A stretch of 64,000 bases of DNA, taken from positions 23,021-87,020 of IMG/VR virus record IMGVR_UViG_3300032173_000003. One strand, given 5' to 3'. Below the pieces are notes generated by a model. It saw nothing but the letters and a program-made list of their open reading frames with translations. It ran no database searches and was not told the origin of the DNA. The position numbers and the translations under genes were made by a program. This document shows, in pieces, positions 2,298-61,038 of the stretch. Positions within the stretch are counted from its first letter, which is position 1; each line of letters starts with the position of its first letter. This stretch comes from a virus.

Positions 2298-2753
2298 TCA
2301 GTTATGTATGTATTGTACCACGGAAAAACCTTCCTTGTCAACCCCCCTCAAGGATGCCAGTAAGCTCTGGAACATCTTGTTGATAACATGCTCTGGGACT
2401 TGACGGGAACGGGCAGCGTTGCGGGATAGGCAGTCTGCTAGCGGGGTGTTGACTATCACAGCTTCCACCTCGGAATACCCGTAGCTTTGAAGCAAGGTCA
2501 GGGCGTCTCTCCGGTAGCTAGCGCGATAGTGAGTACCGTCCATGATAATGGTGCGGCCTACGTTCTCTTCCAAGGTTTCAACGATTTTGTCATGGATCTC
2601 CACCCAGTTGCCCTGAATGTTGGCATCACCGTAGAGTTGCTCACGGATGGTATCGCCGCAGATTACTACAGCACCTGGGTGCTCGGCTTTCAGTTTTTCA
2701 GAATGGGTTGATTTGCCGGAGCCTGGCGCCCCAACCATTACAAATGCTTTCAT
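2298..2753 (-). CDS. Polynucleotide 5'-kinase-like P-loop protein
   Basis: 151 residues from the ATG at 2753; an ATG 39 nt upstream is unlikely because it would overlap the previous gene by 29 nt. Walker A is GAPGSGKST (residues 6-14). An ICGDTIREQL segment and DGTHYR near 90-95 match the 5'-kinase domain of T4 polynucleotide kinase and its AAA_33 relatives, as does the Arg-rich lid (SRNAARSRQVPE). T4 Pnkp phosphorylates 5'-OH RNA ends before ligation. Together with the separate HAD phosphatase (492-896) and two RNA ligases in this window it would complete a Pnkp/ligase repair route. A small-molecule kinase is an alternative. Confidence 0.8.
   Translation of the reverse strand: MKAFVMVGAPGSGKSTHSEKLKAEHPGAVVICGDTIREQLYGDANIQGNWVEIHDKIVETLEENVGRTIIMDGTHYRASYRRDALTLLQSYGYSEVEAVIVNTPLADCLSRNAARSRQVPEHVINKMFQSLLASLRGVDKEGFSVVQYIHN
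2312..2341 (-). promoter_or_regulatory. Promoter of the PPP phosphatase operon
   Basis: Minus strand: TTGACA, 18-nt spacer, TACAAT. It lies inside the 3' end of the kinase gene. Confidence 0.75.
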
Positions 2754-2763
2754 TGTTCTTGTT

Positions 2764-3009
2764 TCAATAAAGACCGGGCCACGGGGCCTCAACTATACTA
2801 GCATCCTTGGTCAAGTACTTCACAGTTTCCGGGTAAACTTGGCAGACTACCCAGAAGATGCAAAATCTGTTAGATGCCCTTGTCACATCCTTCACAAGCC
2901 AGCCGCTTTGCTTAGCAAAAGAGATGGCATCTTTTTTAAGGGCAAAAGTTGCCAAACCTTGCTCACGCAAGCTGGTTCCGGCTTTGCCCCTATGGTCGAG
3001 ATCGCGCAT
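2764..3009 (-). CDS. Hypothetical protein
   Basis: 81 residues from the ATG at 3009. Two earlier in-frame ATGs (3054, 3048) are doubtful: the first is part of a TGCTACAATG element that looks like a -10 box. Contains DLDHRGKAG and a W-rich C-terminus. Lies upstream of the kinase gene with a 10-nt gap. Not recognised. Confidence 0.5.
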   Translation of the reverse strand: MRDLDHRGKAGTSLREQGLATFALKKDAISFAKQSGWLVKDVTRASNRFCIFWVVCQVYPETVKYLTKDASIVEAPWPGLY

Positions 3010-14905: not shown

Positions 14906-16368
14906 GATAACCCGAACGCTGTACCAACTGGGGCGTAACGCTCGGCATAGACCGCATTCTTCATAACCTCGATGGGAGTAATCACCTTGCCGGTAAGAAC
15001 CGATGTGAGGATTGAAGGGCTGCAGCCAGAAACAAGGCAAGTGCCCGTATCGTGCATCTTCATGGGGACGTTGCCCCCGGCGTTAACATTCCAGAACACA
15101 AGCTCAGGCAAAGAATATCCAGCTTGGGCGTACTTGATTCGGATTGCTTCAAAGTTTGTAACTGAAGCCCCTGTGCAACACCGGTCAAACTCCATGTCTG
15201 AAACAATGATGAGCTTGCGGGGCATGTCTCCTTCGGGGACATTGTTTCTAACCGCAGTATTCAACACCAGGTTAAATACCGCTTGAAGGTCCGTACTCAT
15301 CCCCCAAGCTGCATTGGAAAGGTTCCTGATGCGTTGGGCAATTGTTTGACCAGTTACAGTTTGCAGTTCGGGAGTTGAAGAGAAAGTCAAGAACTTGTCT
15401 TTCCAGATCCCAGTGTTGCGCTCCGAGATATACATCGCCATAGAGATGGAAACTGCCATAGGAGTTCCATACATGGAGCCAGAGACGTCAGCAACAACAA
15501 GTCCGTTAAACTCTTGACCCTCCATGTAGTTAGGCAGAGCCTCCCACATTAGGTTCAGGGTTTGGTCACTGGATTCACCTTTGTTCAGGTACTTGTCTAC
15601 GATTTCGTAAGGATAGATGGTGCCAGCATTAATCTTAGCCTCACCCTTTTCAACAGCATTGAGGTACGTTTGGTAACGTTCCCCATCACGTTTTGCGAAA
15701 GCCTTGCGATACATAAAGCCAGCCCGAGAAGGCAACTTGCTGTAATCAATATTTTCCCATTCACGGGAGCACATTGCTTGTTCGACAATTCGGATTTGCG
15801 TACGAAGGGCGGTGAGAGCCTTGCGGTATTGGCGCTCAGACCAACCCATTGCTTCGGCAATCTTGCGGCCGATGCGCTTTGATTCTTTACTGGAAGCATT
15901 AACCGAAGGCAGCCACTTTGCAAGTAGGGAAACAGAGTTTCCTACTTCCGTATTCAAGTCAGTGGTAAGCTGAGTCTTGATGGCGTTCAAGGCAACATCC
16001 CAGACCAGGGTTCCCTCAAGTACCACCAAGTCGTCCCAACGTCCGAACTCAGGAATCAGACCGACAAGTTTAGCGCCGATTGTAGCGTCACTGCGCACAA
16101 GTTCCTTAAACAGTTCACGGAAGATTTTGCGCTCACCTTGGCCTCCACGAATGTCGCGAGCCCAAAATAGAATCCTGGCTGCAGTTTCTGCGTCTTCGGC
16201 GTAAGCCAGGTTGAATAGGCGAACGGCTTCAGGCACATTGTCACGGCAGGCCGCAATCTTACCAAAAAGGTCAAGATTCTTGGAACCTGTGGACTTATAG
16301 GCTTTTGCGCCGTTTGCAGTCGTGGTGGTATTGAAGTTGTTCTCTAGAGCGTTTAGAAATGTCGTCAT
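14902..16368 (-). CDS. DUF2828-like protein: TROVE-like helical domain plus vWA
   Basis: 488 residues. The N-terminal 280 are helical repeats with phrases typical of DUF2828 (DIRGGQGERKIFRELF, SLLAKWLPSVNASSKESKRI, RQYRKALTALRTQIRIVEQA, YSKLPSRAGFMYRKAF). The C-terminal 200 form a von Willebrand A domain with an intact MIDAS motif DVSGSM and a later SDMEF. The architecture parallels Ro60/Rsr, a ring that binds tRNA-like Y RNAs and misfolded RNA. I infer an RNA-binding role; true homology to TROVE needs a profile search. Two promoters precede it, and the abnormal tRNA cluster lies 0.6 kb downstream. Confidence 0.8.
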   Translation of the reverse strand: MTTFLNALENNFNTTTTANGAKAYKSTGSKNLDLFGKIAACRDNVPEAVRLFNLAYAEDAETAARILFWARDIRGGQGERKIFRELFKELVRSDATIGAKLVGLIPEFGRWDDLVVLEGTLVWDVALNAIKTQLTTDLNTEVGNSVSLLAKWLPSVNASSKESKRIGRKIAEAMGWSERQYRKALTALRTQIRIVEQAMCSREWENIDYSKLPSRAGFMYRKAFAKRDGERYQTYLNAVEKGEAKINAGTIYPYEIVDKYLNKGESSDQTLNLMWEALPNYMEGQEFNGLVVADVSGSMYGTPMAVSISMAMYISERNTGIWKDKFLTFSSTPELQTVTGQTIAQRIRNLSNAAWGMSTDLQAVFNLVLNTAVRNNVPEGDMPRKLIIVSDMEFDRCCTGASVTNFEAIRIKYAQAGYSLPELVFWNVNAGGNVPMKMHDTGTCLVSGCSPSILTSVLTGKVITPIEVMKNAVYAERYAPVGTAFGLS

Positions 16369-24331: not shown

Positions 24332-24541
24332 TCACCCGAACCCGTGCTCATCCCAGAAAAGGTTAGCTTCATATAGGCCGCCGTACCAAATGGCCGTAAA
24401 TAACCAGAATAGGCATATAGTTGCAAGCAGGAAAGGATAAATAAGCAGTCGCCTCAGGATGACAAACCACGGCAACAAACCTGTGCGTCTGTTTTCGGGC
24501 CAGCGCAGAATCTTGATTAGTTTTTGTTCTTTAATAGCCAT
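24332..24541 (-). CDS. Small membrane protein
   Basis: 69 residues: basic N-terminus, then a long hydrophobic stretch LLIYPFLLATICLFWLFTAI. Overlaps the end of the RNA ligase gene by 25 nt. Function unknown. Confidence 0.55.
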   Translation of the reverse strand: MAIKEQKLIKILRWPENRRTGLLPWFVILRRLLIYPFLLATICLFWLFTAIWYGGLYEANLFWDEHGFG

Positions 24542-25551
24542 TCGTTACTAATTACTTTGAATGAGAATGAGGAATCGTAGGATTTGAATACCAGACCTTC
24601 GCGCTTGACTTCAGGATTTAAAGAAGGGCCAGTGGCATAGCTGAGCAATGCTTCGACATTATCAAAGCGGCTAGCCACATAAGTGCGCAAATCCCAGATT
24701 GGAGTGTGCTCAAGGTTGGCCCCAAGGGCAATCAGAATGTCCTCAAGGAAGGCAAGACGTTGACCGGGCTTCATGTAGGTCCCGGCATCAATGTCAAAGA
24801 TGTCAAACAGGTACAGGCGTTGGCCTTGAATTTTTTCCTGATTACCCTGGATTCCTTCGCCAATGAGTTCACCTTGGATAGCCACATTGTGGCCAGTCCT
24901 TTTGTTGTAAGCAAGCAGTGCCTCAACGATGTTTTGATCTCGGGCAGCTTTCCAGAAACTGTTCCCTTCTGTCTCTATCAAATCAAGGTTACGGCTGCAT
25001 ACACCGACCTCTCCATCCTTGACGTAGATTGTGCAAGAGGAGCCGTCGAGTTTGATAGTGACCTCAAAGGACTCATCTTTGTGCTTCTCAAAAATGTCCG
25101 AAACAACGTTCTGGCAACGTTCCTGGTCAGTTTTTGGAATGAAGCTGGGGAAGTTGCCCCTAGCTGTACCTGCAAGGCAGGCAGGGACAGGTGCTTCCCA
25201 TTTTTGAATGCCCAGGGTTTCTGTAACATCGGTTCCAGGGTCACGGAAGAAGCTAAGCTCTACCGGCAGCAAAAGCCCCTGCGACAAAGTACCCCTGAGT
25301 CGGATAGTTCTCAAACGTTCACCTTTCACCCCATTATATTCACGGGGCTCTTTGCCTTTACTGAGGAATGGGGCAAGTTCGTGGGGGATCCATGAATCCA
25401 CCTCACAATAAATCACAAGGTCGTTTACTTGATACTTATTGATAGTATCAACAACCCACCAACCATCTACCCGATAAGCACAAATCTTATCTGCTTCTGG
25501 AATCGGTTTAATTTCTTCAATTTCTCGGATTGTTGCCAGTTTTCGTGTCAT
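24517..25551 (-). CDS. RNA ligase, DRB0094/Rnl5-like (N-terminal OB domain)
   Basis: 344 residues. Nucleotidyl-lysine motif I is KLDGSS with Lys167; downstream GVCSRNLDL and GELIGEGIQGN match motifs Ia/III-IV, and REGLVFKS near the end the motif V region. Residues 1-120 form a separate domain starting RKLATIREIEEIKPIPEADK, as in the DRB0094 family that seals 3'-OH/5'-phosphate RNA ends. It should seal ends healed by the kinase and phosphatase encoded near the left edge. Immediately upstream is a wrecked endonuclease gene and then the first 34 codons of a second such ligase. Confidence 0.88.
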   Translation of the reverse strand: MTRKLATIREIEEIKPIPEADKICAYRVDGWWVVDTINKYQVNDLVIYCEVDSWIPHELAPFLSKGKEPREYNGVKGERLRTIRLRGTLSQGLLLPVELSFFRDPGTDVTETLGIQKWEAPVPACLAGTARGNFPSFIPKTDQERCQNVVSDIFEKHKDESFEVTIKLDGSSCTIYVKDGEVGVCSRNLDLIETEGNSFWKAARDQNIVEALLAYNKRTGHNVAIQGELIGEGIQGNQEKIQGQRLYLFDIFDIDAGTYMKPGQRLAFLEDILIALGANLEHTPIWDLRTYVASRFDNVEALLSYATGPSLNPEVKREGLVFKSYDSSFSFKVISNEWLLKNKN

Positions 25552-29320: not shown

Positions 29321-30415
29321 TTAGATACCTAAAAGGTTGTCAAGTTGGGTGGGCCTAAGGGAACCTAACCACTGGCTAAAGTTGCCGTATTTGCCAGCAC
29401 GGAGAGCGAAACAAGCCCCAGAAAGTTCTTTGGACTCAGCTAGGACAACTTGGGCAAAGTCCTTCTGGTTAAGGTCTTTGTGGGCCGCAACAGTGGCATT
29501 TACCCAATGTCCCATCGTTTCGATAGAAGCAATGTAGGAATCGAATTGCTCCTTGTACTCGGGGAAATGAAGCAGAAACTCTTCTAGGTCGTCATTGAGA
29601 AACAACTCAGAGAAGTCCGGCTCACCGTTACCACGCACCCTGTGCAACTGGCAATAAACATCAGATTTTGCCTTAGCCCGCCCTGAGCCATCAAAGAGGA
29701 CAAACCCCTCATGGTCTGCTCCACGATTGTTAATCACGGACATCAAACCTTCCATGCTGCCAAAGTCATATGACTTTGCAACTTCGTAACCATGTTGCAG
29801 ACCAAAGTCTTCCAGGTCCAGTTCTTCAAAGTCCTGGGTACGGTCCCTAACAGCAAGCAGCGGTAGCTGCGGCTCAGCGTAATCCACTACAATGCGGTTG
29901 TCACGGTGGCACAGTTCAAAAATGTAGCAAAGGTCTGGATCCAGAACTTCTCGGGAATAACCAACTCCGTCGAAGACGGACCAGAACAACTCAGCAAATG
30001 AGCGCCCAGTCGCACCAACCTCTGCAGCAGCCGCAACTGTACCGGAGGTTGAAACAATCCATTCACCCCCATAGTTGAACATTTTTATTAGCGAGCCATC
30101 ATACTTTTCATAGACCTTGGTACTAGACCAGTCTAGTCCATGACAGTGGCCTTCGCCAACGTTGAAGAACCGGTCGAAAGCATACGCCGCTAGCTTGTAA
30201 CAGCCTGTGCTGTCACGCTCCACTACCGCACCACGGCAAGCGCAAACTAGCGGATTTGATTTATCCGCCAGTATAGAGCCGTATTTCAGGTTGAAGAGAT
30301 TCGGGTAGCGCTCATCTCGGCCGACACGAATGTCGTACTCAGCCAGTTCTTCCAGGGCATTAGAGCCCCGCTCATTCAGCCAGCCAATGAGGTAGTGGCG
30401 AAGATTCAGTTCCAT
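29321..30415 (-). CDS. T4 Rnl1-family RNA ligase
   Basis: 364 residues, close to the 374 of T4 RNA ligase 1. Nucleotidyl-lysine motif I is KYDGSL with Lys104 (Lys99 in T4). RGAVVERDSTGCYKLAAYAF then FDRFFNVGEGH precede it as in Rnl1, and EGFVLFD near 250 plus KAKSDVYCQLH fit motifs IV and V. Rnl1 seals broken anticodon loops after Pnkp healing, classically undoing host anticodon-nuclease (PrrC) damage. A second RNA ligase of another family is at 24517. Confidence 0.88.
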   Translation of the reverse strand: MELNLRHYLIGWLNERGSNALEELAEYDIRVGRDERYPNLFNLKYGSILADKSNPLVCACRGAVVERDSTGCYKLAAYAFDRFFNVGEGHCHGLDWSSTKVYEKYDGSLIKMFNYGGEWIVSTSGTVAAAAEVGATGRSFAELFWSVFDGVGYSREVLDPDLCYIFELCHRDNRIVVDYAEPQLPLLAVRDRTQDFEELDLEDFGLQHGYEVAKSYDFGSMEGLMSVINNRGADHEGFVLFDGSGRAKAKSDVYCQLHRVRGNGEPDFSELFLNDDLEEFLLHFPEYKEQFDSYIASIETMGHWVNATVAAHKDLNQKDFAQVVLAESKELSGACFALRAGKYGNFSQWLGSLRPTQLDNLLGI

Positions 30416-38229: not shown

Positions 38230-38373
38230 TCAAACGGCAACGGCAATCCTCTCGAATTTGACGATTTTGTTAGCGTCTATTTTGTGCTTATGCAAGCGGC
38301 TTTCAGTGATTGGCTTGCTGTCGGTCGATTCCAGAGCGGACCCGTGGTGGAGAGGTGGGATTCTAACCCACAT
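38230..38373 (-). CDS. Possible small basic protein
   Basis: 47-codon frame; the second part (SRLHKHKIDANKIVKFERIA) reads like protein, but the first codons overlap the T-arm of a tRNA-like element, so start and reality are doubtful. Confidence 0.35.
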   Translation of the reverse strand: MWVRIPPLHHGSALESTDSKPITESRLHKHKIDANKIVKFERIAVAV

Positions 38374-38423
38374 TAGACCTTTCCCCATGAGTAATAGTGA
38401 GGGAGAGCGGTCTAAGTTCTCTC
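38350..38423 (-). ncRNA. tRNA-like element without D-arm
   Basis: GAGAG/CTCTC closing stem, T-arm GTGGG-TTAGAAT-CCCAC (Cys-56 position changed to A) and a 7-bp helix TTAGACC/GGTCTAA enclosing about 29 nt. No D-arm and no readable anticodon. Confidence 0.45.
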
Positions 38424-38426
38424 AAT

Positions 38427-38482
38427 GGATCCGAGGCGATTCGAACGCCTGTGTCGCTCAGTAGTTACAATCACCTACACCC
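38427..38482 (-). ncRNA. tRNA 3'-half-like element
   Basis: A perfect T-arm AGGCG-TTCGAAT-CGCCT and 3' strand CGGATCC, preceded only by a short GTAG/CTAC hairpin. No matching 5' acceptor strand or D-arm within 100 nt. Confidence 0.45.
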
Positions 38483-50559: not shown

Positions 50560-50692
50560 AGCCCGATGTCAGATTTGAACTGACGACCTATCGCTTATTG
50601 CAACCAACAGGAATCGAACCTGAACAATGCCAACTGAGACATTGAGACCGCTGGGAACCAAGGCGAGTGCTCTACCACTGAGCTAATCGGGC
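50560..50692 (-). tRNA. tRNA-Thr (TGT, split) with another tRNA piece inserted in its anticodon loop
   Basis: The outer gene is a normal acceptor GCCCGAT/ATCGGGC, D-arm and T-arm GTCAG-TTCAAAT-CTGAC. The anticodon arm is CTCGC-CTTG, about 61 nt, TAA-GCGA. Joining CTTG to TAA gives anticodon TGT. The insert holds a hairpin CAATG/CATTG and its own T-arm CAGG-TTCGATT-CCTG, so it looks like the 3' part of a second tRNA. An Ile(TAT) reading with a slightly different joint is possible. Confidence 0.75.
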
Positions 50693-51989: not shown

Positions 51990-52069
51990 AGTATGGACAG
52001 GATTTGAACCTGCGATGCCAGAGGCGACTGTTGTACATACAGTCCACTATACCCGAGAACCGTGTACAC
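51990..52069 (-). tRNA. Degenerate tRNA-Tyr-like (GTA)
   Basis: Anticodon arm GACTGT-ATGTACA-ACAGTC reads GTA, followed by a short variable hairpin and T-arm GCAGG-TTCAAAT-CCTGT. The acceptor (GTGTACA/TCCATAC) has mismatches and no convincing D-arm exists. A normal tRNA-Tyr lies at 52331. Confidence 0.6.
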
Positions 52070-52118
52070 AATTCCTGTCTCAGTGAGACATACTCGTGAA
52101 GTTTCCGTTAGGAAACAA

Positions 52119-52413: not shown

Positions 52414-52435
52414 ATATTGAACTGTGTTTGAACAA

Positions 52436-52515
52436 GGTGAGTTTTGTATTTTTTGCAAGCGCAAAAAGTTGGAATCGAACCAACAGTATCCAGTATAGGA
52501 TGTTGCTGCCTCACC
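52436..52515 (-). tRNA. D-arm-less tRNA-like RNA carrying the CAGC motif (copy K)
   Basis: Closing helix GGTGAG/CTCACC, GCAGCAACA in place of a D-arm, hairpin ATCC-TATACT-GGAT, T-arm GTTGG-TTCGATT-CCAAC, then hairpin TTTTTGC/GCAAAAA, ATACAAAAC and the closing strand. Same layout as 14050-14130. Confidence 0.6.
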
Positions 52516-52537
52516 TTATGGTTTCATAATTTAGCAA

Positions 52538-52586
52538 GATGGTTGTTTTTCTACCAAAAAGAAAGGTTTTAGATTGCTGAACCATC
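52538..52586 (-). ncRNA. Stand-alone CAGC-motif hairpin (copy G)
   Basis: Outer helix GATGGTT/AACCATC, strand CAGCAATCTAAAACC, inner helix TTTC/GAAA, strand AAC. Very close to copy F at 14326. Confidence 0.65.
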
Positions 52587-52625
52587 TTTGAAATGCTATC
52601 GCATTTCTTTTCCGTTAGGAAAAGA

Positions 52626-53937: not shown

Positions 53938-54055
53938 AAACCAAGGTTGGACTTGAACCAACGGCTTGCTTTACCCTCCGGCATTACGGTCCTTTACCGA
54001 GGCTCTCTTAGAAAGCCTGAGGAGGTTGCTGCTCTACCAACTGAGCTACTTGGCT
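53938..54055 (-). tRNA. tRNA with an enlarged anticodon domain
   Basis: Acceptor AGCCAAG/CTTGGTT, D-arm GCTC-GAGC and T-arm GTTGG-TTCAAGT-CCAAC are good. Between them an extra helix CCTCC/GGAGG encloses an anticodon-like hairpin AGGCT-TTCTAAGAG-AGCCT and a second hairpin CGGT-AAAGG-ACCG. 118 nt in all. Anticodon not assigned. Confidence 0.7.
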
Positions 54056-57390: not shown

Positions 57391-58494
57391 TTAATCAGTA
57401 TAAATGATTGCCTCGCAAAGTTCATTAATGATGGAGCGGTCAATGTTCCCTGGCAAAACACACTCATTTTTAATAACGTGCTCTGACAGCTCAAACAACT
57501 GGTTAACCATTTGGTTTAGCTCACCGTAGGAAACCCTGCCATACTTAATGTCCAGGAGCAGCTGATGGTCCCCAGCCCTTTTCCGGTTGACAATGATTTC
57601 CCCGGTACGCAATCCTTCAATAGCCATATTCATCAACCTAACGCAATGGCTGGCATTTTTACCATCGTACCCGCAGACCCTCTCAATTTCCGAACGTTTG
57701 ACGTTACGATTCGTTAGCCAATCCTGGTAGTTGCTCCAACGTTTGCAATCAGAGCGGTACTGCTGGCTAGCCCTAAGCAACGCCATGTAATCGTCGTTAG
57801 CCCTGGTCATTTCCTGGGACAAGTCAAAGCATTCATCCGGGAGGATGCTTTGCTTAAGGACTCCTTTCCAATCAACCCTGTCATTCAGAAGCTCATACAA
57901 ATCCTTGGCCACCTGGTAATACTCAATTCTGTCTTTAATCAGCAGATACAAGTATTCAATAAAGGCTTCGATCTGGGTGCTTGCAAGGTTACTGGATGGA
58001 ACCCCATAGTCCTCCCACTCAGGTTTTTTCATAGGGGGGTCAAGCAACCACTTCCTGTGAGTCTCCATCTTTTTGATTTGAGCCCGTGCATACTGCACAA
58101 AGGTTCCCGCAATCTTCTTTGAAATCAGCCTGTGTTTGTTTTCAACTAGGATTTTTCCAAAGTCATTGATGTAGATGTAATCTTGAGGCTCTTGCCACAG
58201 CATTTCCAGAATGTTTGGGTTTTGTGACTGTAGCAACCTTAGGTAACGCCTAACTTCGTAAACAGCCGTATCTGAACCATCAAGTTCTGGGAACTTTGAC
58301 TTAGGGGAGGGCTCAGCGTCCCAACCCTTATCCTTCTGCTCAAACTCTTCTAGGGAGACGTAGAACCTTAGTGGGGCAATACAAATCCCTTTATAGTCCC
58401 TGTCAGACATTTCCGTGTTAAGACCATAAGCATGGGACCCTGACGTACAGAACAGGATCATGCCGTCTTCAATTTCTTTCCTAGTGATTGACAT
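57391..58494 (-). CDS. RlaP-type nucleotidyltransferase
   Basis: 367 residues from the ATG at 58494. FCTSGSHAYGLNTEMSDRDY near 14-33 is the GS...D.D catalytic motif of the pol-beta superfamily as found in RlaP (PF10127), followed by helical domain QYARAQIKKMETHRKWLL. RlaP enzymes are predicted partners of RNA repair systems that add nucleotides to damaged RNA ends. Phage homologues are known. Fits the other end-processing genes here. Confidence 0.85.
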   Translation of the reverse strand: MSITRKEIEDGMILFCTSGSHAYGLNTEMSDRDYKGICIAPLRFYVSLEEFEQKDKGWDAEPSPKSKFPELDGSDTAVYEVRRYLRLLQSQNPNILEMLWQEPQDYIYINDFGKILVENKHRLISKKIAGTFVQYARAQIKKMETHRKWLLDPPMKKPEWEDYGVPSSNLASTQIEAFIEYLYLLIKDRIEYYQVAKDLYELLNDRVDWKGVLKQSILPDECFDLSQEMTRANDDYMALLRASQQYRSDCKRWSNYQDWLTNRNVKRSEIERVCGYDGKNASHCVRLMNMAIEGLRTGEIIVNRKRAGDHQLLLDIKYGRVSYGELNQMVNQLFELSEHVIKNECVLPGNIDRSIINELCEAIIYTD

Positions 58495-59821: not shown

Positions 59822-60011
59822 GTGCTTTCTCTAAGTATTTGTAAGGGTTTTCAATGAGCCATATGCGGAAGATGGCATCCGCCTGTTTCGGGGAGAGATT
59901 CGGGAATCTTCTAGTTAGGGAGGACTCTATGTTAAAAATGTTTACTTTTTTGTTATCCCTTAGGAAAGTCAAGTAGTTCAAGTGAACTTCTATTACGGGC
60001 ATTGCGGTCAT
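59811..60011 (-). CDS. Small protein, paralogue of 59633
   Basis: 66 residues from the ATG at 60011, which overlaps the Thg1 stop by 4 nt. LNYLTFLRDNKKVNIFNIES then LSPKQADAIFRIWL aligns with the downstream gene; the duplicated pair has diverged. Confidence 0.65.
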   Translation of the reverse strand: MTAMPVIEVHLNYLTFLRDNKKVNIFNIESSLTRRFPNLSPKQADAIFRIWLIENPYKYLEKAHEN

Positions 60012-60793
60012 AGGGACAAGAACCAATCCAATGATAACTTGTCCGGGGGCACCCATTCGGACACCACTGTTCGGATAACCGGCTCAGTCGGTTTGTATGC
60101 CTCGGGGATTTTCTCCAGGGATGGATCATCCGGCTGAATAAGGACTCTTTGCCTACGGACATAGGTTCCGTGAGTGAAGAACCTGGGCAGCTCCTCCCAA
60201 GGATTACCCGAGTTGCGGAGCAAATCCTTCATCTCATTGCAAGTTTCCCCTTGGAGGAACTTATGTGAAAAATGATGGTAGGCATACATAGACACAGAGT
60301 TCTTAGTAGCATCATTCAACCGCCACAGGAAGTTCTTGTAAACATGCTCAAGGTCTGGCACGTTCCATACTCGGCAATCAAACACCGGGTATTGTCCGAC
60401 TTTTTCCGGCAGATACCTTGGGAGGTTGCCGGCAAAGAAGGAGGATGCCGTGGCTGCCAACACTGAAGTCAATTTCTGAAACTTGCCACCGAACCAATAC
60501 TCCCTATTTGAATACTGCTCCTTGTCCAGGTGCCAGTATAAAGATATTTCGTCAGATTGGCAAAACCCGAGCAAAGCCTCACTCTCTTCAACAAGGTGCT
60601 TAGTTGTAGCAACCATCAGGCGAACAAAACGTTCGTCAAATGGGCGCTCCAACCCCTTAGTGAATTTGGAAAAGCACTTGCCGTCAATGCGAGCCATCAA
60701 CGGGAGGTAAGGATTTGCCTTACGTCCTGCCTCTGCCTGCTCTTGAACCTTGAGTAAATCCCCAAGGGTATCCTTATAGTTTGATTCAGTCAT
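60008..60793 (-). CDS. Thg1-like 3'-5' RNA polymerase
   Basis: 261 residues from the ATG at 60793 (4-nt overlap with the lipoprotein gene). The palm motif ARIDGKCFSKFTKGLERPFD near 34-53 and GFCQSDEISLYW near 78-89 give the metal-binding Asp residues and the QSDEIS signature of Thg1/TLP enzymes; FDCRVWNVPD follows. Thg1 adds G-1 to tRNA-His; Thg1-like proteins repair 5'-truncated tRNAs by templated 3'-to-5' addition. With kinase, ligases and RlaP this is the fifth RNA end-processing enzyme. Confidence 0.9.
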   Translation of the reverse strand: MTESNYKDTLGDLLKVQEQAEAGRKANPYLPLMARIDGKCFSKFTKGLERPFDERFVRLMVATTKHLVEESEALLGFCQSDEISLYWHLDKEQYSNREYWFGGKFQKLTSVLAATASSFFAGNLPRYLPEKVGQYPVFDCRVWNVPDLEHVYKNFLWRLNDATKNSVSMYAYHHFSHKFLQGETCNEMKDLLRNSGNPWEELPRFFTHGTYVRRQRVLIQPDDPSLEKIPEAYKPTEPVIRTVVSEWVPPDKLSLDWFLSL

Positions 60794-61038
60794 TTGAAGT
60801 CTTTCCATTGCGGTGTCTGCCCACAGTTTTGTTTTTCCAACGGGTAGCGGGCAACCACACAATTCTGGTGCGCTTCCAAAGAGTTTAGATAGAGGTCGGA
60901 CTTAATTTGAAGAATGTCCCGCTCTTTGCAGTCACTTTGGTTTTTGTATGGGCACGGTTGAGGATTAGGTTTAGGTTCCTCGTGGCTGCACCCTGTTAAA
61001 ATAATAAGGGGCAACACAATCAATAGCAGATACATCAA
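60790..61038 (-). CDS. Small lipoprotein
   Basis: 82 residues; signal peptide YLLLIVLPLIILTGC with lipobox, then a Cys-containing mature part (PQPCPYKNQSDCKERD). Exported and lipid-anchored. Between a helicase and the Thg1 gene; function unknown. Confidence 0.65.
   Translation of the reverse strand: MMYLLLIVLPLIILTGCSHEEPKPNPQPCPYKNQSDCKERDILQIKSDLYLNSLEAHQNCVVARYPLEKQNCGQTPQWKDFK

What the first reader, a model, noticed from the sequence alone, without database searches (positions are those of the whole stretch)
50560..50692. tRNA-Thr with another tRNA's 3' part inside its anticodon loop
Seen: the outer Thr gene is complete and its anticodon arm closes perfectly if 61 nt are removed; those 61 nt hold their own hairpin and a canonical T-arm. 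A nested tRNA of this kind is, to my knowledge, not described in phages. It has no clear CAGC-motif helix, so it may be a separate route to an interrupted tRNA.
Basis: seen in the sequence. Interest (0 to 1): 0.8.

Follow-up and report, generated by a model that had tools for sequence, protein, structure and literature searches.

The report
tRNA gene split by nested mini-tRNA
A cyanophage threonine tRNA gene is interrupted inside its anticodon by a small tRNA-shaped insert; a diverged related phage keeps an insert at the same place, and about two dozen unrelated phage tRNA genes carry similar ones, which suggests an undescribed class of phage tRNA intron that ordinary tRNA-trimming enzymes could cut out and a phage RNA ligase could seal.

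Summary
Confirmed. On the minus strand at 50560-50692 lies a Thr(UGU) tRNA gene with 61 nt inserted between anticodon bases 35 and 36. Removing them leaves a normal 72-nt tRNA. The insert is more than another tRNA's 3' part. It reads as a minimal tRNA top half: acceptor strands at both ends (5 of 7 pairs), one hairpin, a T-arm and a discriminator base. A related phage (L217) has the same gene with a 44-nt insert at the same position. The exons match at 70 of 72 bases, and the two differences are the two sides of one T-stem pair. L217's insert has 6 of 7 acceptor pairs and ends exactly at the discriminator. A scan of 2.9 million viral contigs found about 28 distinct inserts of this kind in Thr, Asn, Arg, Pro, Met and Ala tRNAs, from complete tRNAs to armless minihelices, mostly at 35|36. 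Best explanation: a tRNA-derived intron, cut at its 5' end by RNase P and at its 3' end by RNase Z, with the halves sealed by a phage Rnl1-type ligase, which the window and L217 phages both encode. Nested structure and conservation are shown; splicing and enzymes are inferred. No earlier description was found in the papers searched.

The parts
50659..50692 (-). 5' exon of tRNA-Thr(UGU), positions 1-35 (acceptor, D-arm, anticodon 5' stem, CUUG)
   Evidence: all 34 bases identical in L217
50598..50658 (-). 61-nt tRNA-like insert between positions 35 and 36
   Evidence: homologous 44-nt insert in L217
50652..50658 (-). inner acceptor 5' strand GUUCCCA (5 of 7 pairs with UGGUUGC; U3.U70 and C4.U69 unpaired)
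   Evidence: tRNA register tested; constrained fold; L217 has 6/7
50625..50644 (-). hairpin CAAUGUC-UCAGUU-GGCAUUG (7 bp) in place of D and anticodon arms; absent from L217
50607..50623 (-). inner T-arm UCAGG UUCGAUU CCUGU (4 of 5 pairs)
50600..50606 (-). inner acceptor 3' strand UGGUUGC, directly after the T-stem
50598..50599 (-). inner discriminator base A73 and one further A; predicted 3' cleavage region
   Evidence: tail AA; L217 tail A; L206, L229, L271 tail AA
50560..50597 (-). 3' exon of tRNA-Thr(UGU), positions 36-73
   Evidence: 36 of 38 identical to L217; the two differences form one T-stem pair
29321..30415 (-). T4 Rnl1-type RNA ligase (PF09511), proposed sealing enzyme
   Evidence: E 8e-18; 70% identical ligase in the L217 phage
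24517..25551 (-). second RNA ligase (PF09414 with N-terminal PF21189 OB-fold domain)
   Evidence: 63% identical protein in the L217 phage
2298..2792 (-). possible polynucleotide kinase (P-loop GAPGSGKST seen by eye; no family search run)
57391..58494 (-). RlaP-family RNA-repair nucleotidyltransferase (PF10127)
60008..60862 (-). Thg1-family tRNA guanylyltransferase (PF04446)

Best explanation
This is a functional but interrupted Thr(UGU) tRNA gene. Its intron is a degenerate tRNA (acceptor helix, T-arm, discriminator base) lodged between anticodon bases 35 and 36. Proposed route: the precursor folds as a small tRNA-like domain sitting on the anticodon stem of the outer tRNA. Host RNase P cuts at the 5' end of the inner domain and RNase Z (or another 3' end-processing nuclease) at or just after its discriminator base. 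This leaves 3'-OH and 5'-phosphate ends in the anticodon loop, which a phage Rnl1-type ligase joins to give Thr(UGU). Such introns plausibly arose from whole tRNA genes nested in another tRNA gene and decayed to the part the end-processing enzymes read. Shown: nested anatomy, conserved insert at the same site in a diverged relative with conserved exons, recurrence in other viral tRNAs at 35|36, ligase genes in the phage. Inferred: excision, the enzymes, ligation, the origin.
For: Orthologue L217: exons 70/72 identical and the two differences are compensatory, in a phage whose matched proteins are 39-88% identical to the window's; the insert has diverged. Second viral scan: 59 hits; after removing duplicates, and together with the window and genome-collection hits, 32 nested inserts against 7 tandem copies of a 3' half. 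The inner acceptor, which the search pattern did not require, pairs in at least 6 of 7 positions at exactly loop offset 4 in 13 of 31 inserts, against 0-1 at most other offsets (binomial about 6e-17, about 8e-15 by families). Several inserts end in N73 or N73-CCA, e.g. Pro ...CGGC ACCA|GGA (L214) and Asn ...TTTTTCC T|TAA (L143). Unconstrained RNAfold gives nested acceptor plus T-arm structures for L217 and L143. Spliced products read as Thr, Asn, Arg, Pro, Met or Ala tRNAs; one reads as tRNA-Sec(UCA) (L236) and one, with no inner acceptor, as Tyr (L257). Series from complete inner tRNA (L124, L230) to armless minihelix (L143, L206, L217). Rnl1 is present in 6 of 9 large contigs with the simple insert, including the window.
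Against: No RNA data: splicing is not shown. The window's own inner acceptor has two mismatches, and its unconstrained MFE fold (-45.1) is not the nested one (-40.1 when constrained), so this copy could be decaying. One extra A follows A73 in the window. Rnl1 was not found in some contigs with simple inserts (L229, L238, and the L143 fragment), and it occurs in 5 of 30 other contigs, some of which also carry odd tRNAs. In inserts with a 5' leader hairpin the 5' junction is not at the inner acceptor, so RNase P alone would not suffice there, and none of 8 such contigs has Rnl1. The second pattern fixed the distance between the two T-arms, so the 3' spacing is not independent evidence.
Confidence: 0.6

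Rival explanations
1. Interrupted pseudogene: a tRNA fragment recombined into the Thr gene, which is dead and no longer processed.
For: C27.U43 mismatch, weak inner acceptor, and an MFE fold that is not the nested one in the window.
Against: The related phage keeps an insert at the same site with exons 70/72 identical and a compensatory T-stem change, and C27.U43 is shared, so it predates the split. Many other tRNAs have inserts with the same site and architecture.
Confidence: 0.15
2. The insert is removed in another way: a small self-cleaving or self-splicing RNA, an unknown phage endonuclease, or an anticodon nuclease followed by Pnkp and Rnl1 healing. The tRNA-like shape only marks its origin or places the cut.
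For: Leader-type inserts in other phages have a conserved 5' hairpin outside the inner tRNA (L213, L228, L242, L241). The phage also has a possible kinase, RlaP and a second ligase.
Against: For simple inserts the ends fall at the places where RNase P and RNase Z act on tRNAs. No Rfam ribozyme or group I intron match.
Confidence: 0.17
3. The 133-nt RNA is not spliced: it is a stable tRNA-like RNA with two T-arms and a non-translational role (decoy or regulator).
For: Relatives carry other unusual T-arm RNAs, e.g. one with two adjacent T-arms at L072 8007-8098; the phage has a DUF2828/DUF7788 protein.
Against: The exons keep a canonical Thr anticodon loop (CTTG+TAA) and near-identity between phages while the insert changes length from 44 to 61 nt. 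In other families removing the insert restores canonical anticodons.
Confidence: 0.06
4. Attachment-site scar: an element integrated in the anticodon loop and left a copy of a tRNA 3' end.
For: Tandem 3'-half copies do occur in bacterial genomes (L255, L259, L264, L267, L270, L272).
Against: There the two 3' halves are copies of each other. Here the inner 3' strand does not pair with the outer 5' acceptor, the inner 5' strand is present, and the insert is an old state shared by two diverged phages.
Confidence: 0.02

Closest known systems
Archaeal/eukaryal pre-tRNA introns (bulge-helix-bulge, splicing endonuclease plus ligase)
   Same: Short intron in the anticodon loop, removed by proteins, halves joined by a ligase (inferred here)
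   Different: Site 35|36 instead of the canonical site one base 3' of the anticodon (PMC4090602); no bulge-helix-bulge; intron is itself tRNA-like; proposed nucleases are RNase P and RNase Z; bacterial host
Group I introns in bacterial tRNA genes (e.g. cyanobacterial tRNA-Leu)
   Same: Intron in the anticodon loop of a tRNA gene
   Different: 61 nt, no ribozyme core, no Rfam match; a 2014 review states that all introns seen in phages were in protein-coding genes (PMC3984707)
T4 Pnkp/Rnl1 tRNA repair after PrrC cleavage
   Same: Phage ligase seals a break in a tRNA anticodon loop (PMC3400036)
   Different: There it repairs damage to a host tRNA; here it would be a step in making the phage's own tRNA
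Circularly permuted tRNA genes
   Different: Gene order here is not permuted; the removed piece is the tRNA-like one and the break is in the anticodon loop
tRNA 3'-half duplications at att sites
   Same: Second T-arm close to a tRNA gene
   Different: The inner 3' half is unrelated to the outer tRNA and has its own 5' acceptor strand

Membership tests
Group I intron | Catalytic core, as detected by the Rfam Intron_gpI model | tested here: not met
   No match in the window; the same model does find one in relative L005; insert is only 61 nt
Bulge-helix-bulge tRNA intron | Two 3-nt bulges separated by a 4-bp helix at the exon-intron junctions | tested here: not met
   Nested fold shows one internal loop between anticodon stem and inner acceptor (read by eye)
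Bulge-helix-bulge tRNA intron | Splicing endonuclease available in host or phage | not tested
   Host is presumed cyanobacterial; no search for the endonuclease was made
Circularly permuted or split tRNA | Matching 5' half of the inner tRNA elsewhere nearby | tested here: not met
   No convincing D-arm-bearing 5' half pairing with UGGUUGC in the array; the pairing strand is at the insert's own 5' end
att-site tRNA 3'-half duplication | Inner 3' half is a copy that can pair with the outer 5' acceptor | tested here: not met
   Classed as nested, not tandem, at the 6-pair threshold
tRNA-like intron class defined here | Outer tRNA complete when the insert is removed; insert at 35|36 | tested here: met
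tRNA-like intron class defined here | Inner acceptor in tRNA register starting at the first insert base, at least 6 of 7 pairs | tested here: inconclusive
   Window 5/7; orthologue L217 6/7; 13 of 31 inserts at this offset
tRNA-like intron class defined here | Inner T-arm directly followed by the acceptor strand and discriminator base at the 3' junction | tested here: met
   Window tail AA, L217 tail A; T1-T2 spacing was part of the search pattern
tRNA-like intron class defined here | Excision by RNase P and RNase Z with ligation by Rnl1 | not testable with these tools
   Needs RNA work; Rnl1 gene present

The most novel reading that the evidence does not exclude
Phages carry a class of protein-spliced tRNA introns that are themselves degenerate tRNAs, lodged in the anticodon, excised by the host's universal tRNA end-processing enzymes and sealed by a phage RNA ligase: a tRNA-splicing system in the bacterial world that uses no splicing endonuclease, and a possible biosynthetic job for Rnl1-type ligases beyond repair.
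Probability: 0.5. Interest if true: 0.93.

Novelty: categorically new. Interest (0 to 1): 0.86.

Why it matters
Known tRNA introns are self-splicing (group I) or removed by a dedicated splicing endonuclease. An intron that is a tRNA needs neither: enzymes every bacterium has would cut it out. That would give a simple path from a nested tRNA gene to an intron, a biosynthetic role for phage RNA ligases long regarded as repair enzymes, and a reason why tRNA finders miss or misname phage tRNAs. It also makes a testable link between phage tRNA arrays, RNA-repair genes and host anticodon nucleases.

Tried and rejected
Exact and near-exact patterns across the window insert: no hit in viral or bacterial collections. 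Donor tRNA for the insert by BLAST in the contig, relatives and phages: only generic T-arm matches, the best TGGCATTG-CAGG at L069 9559-9582. Missing 5' half for a permuted tRNA: none convincing. Methylase neighbour as a bait for relatives: no hit. Named isolates with nested tRNAs: no BLAST match for four inserts, none in the stretches read of phiPMW, J2-1 or vB_CoeS_P1, which have Rnl1-type ligases. RtcB as sealing enzyme: present in 1 of 23 nested contigs only. Pro(UGG) identity (ARAGORN with introns) was rejected in favour of Thr(UGU).

Full report
Observation. The minus strand at 50560-50692 reads GCCCGATTAGCTCAGTGGTAGAGCACTCGCCTTG | GTTCCCAGCGGTCTCAATGTCTCAGTTGGCATTGTTCAGGTTCGATTCCTGTTGGTTGCAA | TAAGCGATAGGTCGTCAGTTCAAATCTGACATCGGGCT. 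Without the middle 61 nt this is a 72-nt tRNA that ARAGORN calls Thr(TGT). The anticodon stem has 4 of 5 pairs, not all five. The gene lies in a dense tRNA array next to Cys and Ser genes, in an 87-kb contig that looks like a cyanophage from its proteins and relatives and that has no other Thr tRNA. A relative (G009) has an uninterrupted Thr(UGU) with the same anticodon arm, also following a Cys gene (L072).

What the insert is. It holds a T-arm directly followed by UGGUUGC-A. In the register of a real tRNA, the first seven bases of the insert (GUUCCCA) are the partner strand, with 5 of 7 pairs, and the space between is a 7-bp hairpin. So it has the anatomy of a tRNA reduced to acceptor, one arm and T-arm, not merely a 3' part.

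A decisive relative. A scan for two T-arms at the spacing expected for such nesting returned the same gene in another contig, L217. That phage is related to the window phage: matched proteins are 39-88% identical over the aligned stretches, the permuted tmRNA region 92% in DNA, and the two RNA ligases 70% and 63%. Its Thr exons are 70/72 identical to the window's, and the only two differences are G-C against A-U at one T-stem pair. Its insert is 44 nt, at the same position: GTTCCAG...ACAGG TTCGATT CCTGT GTGGAGC A, with 6 of 7 acceptor pairs, a full T-stem and the discriminator exactly at the junction. Long-term conservation of exons around a changing insert argues that the insert is removed and the tRNA used.

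A class. The second, tighter scan covered all 2.9 million viral contigs: 59 hits, against 19 in 257 billion bases of bacterial and archaeal genomes. A parser that requires outer acceptor, D-arm and anticodon stem to pair found 32 distinct nested inserts including the window. Seven further hits, six of them in the genome collection, were merely tandem copies of one tRNA's 3' half. Among 31 inserts the inner acceptor pairs in at least 6 of 7 positions at loop offset 4 in 13, at offset 3 in 5, and at most other offsets in 0 or 1. The pattern did not ask for the inner acceptor, but it did fix the spacing of the T-arms, so the 3' spacing is not independent. Several tails read N73 or N73-CCA: Pro L214 ACCA|GGA, Asn L143 T|TAA, Arg L201 A|TAA. 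Inner elements range from a complete tRNA-Phe (L124, L230, inside a gene whose anticodon would be Thr(UGU) or Arg(UCU) depending on the cut) through partly complete ones (L232, L244) to armless minihelices (L143, L206, L217). Identical or homologous inserts recur in separate contigs (L143/L205/L216/L224; L201/L246/L211/L221; L214/L227/L253).

Mechanism. RNase P and RNase Z recognise chiefly the acceptor/T-arm half of a tRNA (established knowledge) and leave 3'-OH and 5'-phosphate ends, the ends that T4 Rnl1 joins after healing of the anticodon loop (PMC3400036). The window phage has a T4 Rnl1-type ligase, a second RNA ligase, RlaP and Thg1 and a possible kinase. Rnl1 was found in 5 of 8 other large contigs with the simple insert (6 of 9 with the window), in 0 of 8 leader-type contigs, and in 5 of 30 contigs from the first scan. 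Fisher p values are about 0.008 and 0.009, but the comparison is loose: the grouping was made after seeing the results, the contigs are fragments and some controls also have odd tRNAs. Excision and ligation have not been shown by any data here.

Limits. The window copy has a weaker inner acceptor than L217, and its MFE fold is 5 kcal/mol below the nested one; it could be an intron in decay. Leader-type inserts (L166, L203, L213, L228, L237, L241, L242, L245) need another first cut. No isolate with such a gene was found.

Known or new. Searches of the held papers found no description of nested or tRNA-like tRNA introns; the library lacks most subscription journals. A 2014 review says that all introns observed in phages lay in protein-coding genes despite their many tRNA genes (PMC3984707). 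The main text of the huge-phage survey of 2020 does not mention introns (PMC7162821). A cautious reader could file this as a new variant of interrupted tRNA genes; I rate the class categorically new because intron type, site and proposed enzymes all differ from known classes.

Noticed in passing
13696-13814, 13919-14041, 14160-14278 (minus): Three further tRNA genes with 44-50 nt inserts holding a hairpin and the motif TCAGCAATTA (or close); the same families occur in relatives (L071, L074, L075, L076). No T-arm inside, so a different insert class.
   Followed up: partly
53938-54055 (minus); L069 6483-6601; L072 8341-8459: A 118-119 nt tRNA-like RNA conserved in three phages, with an enlarged anticodon region (GGTAAAGGACCGTAAYGCYGGAGGG) rather than a normal anticodon arm.
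   Followed up: partly
51990-52100, 52430-52600, 14060-14140 (minus): T-arm-bearing RNAs with acceptor-like closing helices but no normal D or anticodon arms; the first has a homologue at L069 9493-9679.
   Followed up: partly
L072 8007-8098 (minus): In relative G009, a 92-nt RNA closed by TTGAGAGT/ACTCTCAA with two hairpins and then two adjacent T-arms.
   Followed up: partly
L069 9870-9960 (minus); L070 6545-6680 (plus): Possible circularly permuted tRNAs in relative G006: T-arm and 3' acceptor come first, then 5' acceptor, D-arm and anticodon-like hairpin.
   Followed up: no
L213, L228, L241, L242, L245, L155, L166, L203, L237: Leader-type nested inserts in other large phages: a conserved 5' hairpin (e.g. 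TGGTTTACCGAAACAAACCA) followed by an inner tRNA with a discriminator at the 3' junction; no Rnl1 found in these contigs.
   Followed up: partly
38230-38475 (minus): A permuted tmRNA gene (RF04321, 55.8 bits), also in several relatives.
   Followed up: no
14902-16368 (minus): Protein with DUF2828 and DUF7788 domains near the CAGC-type interrupted tRNAs.
   Followed up: no
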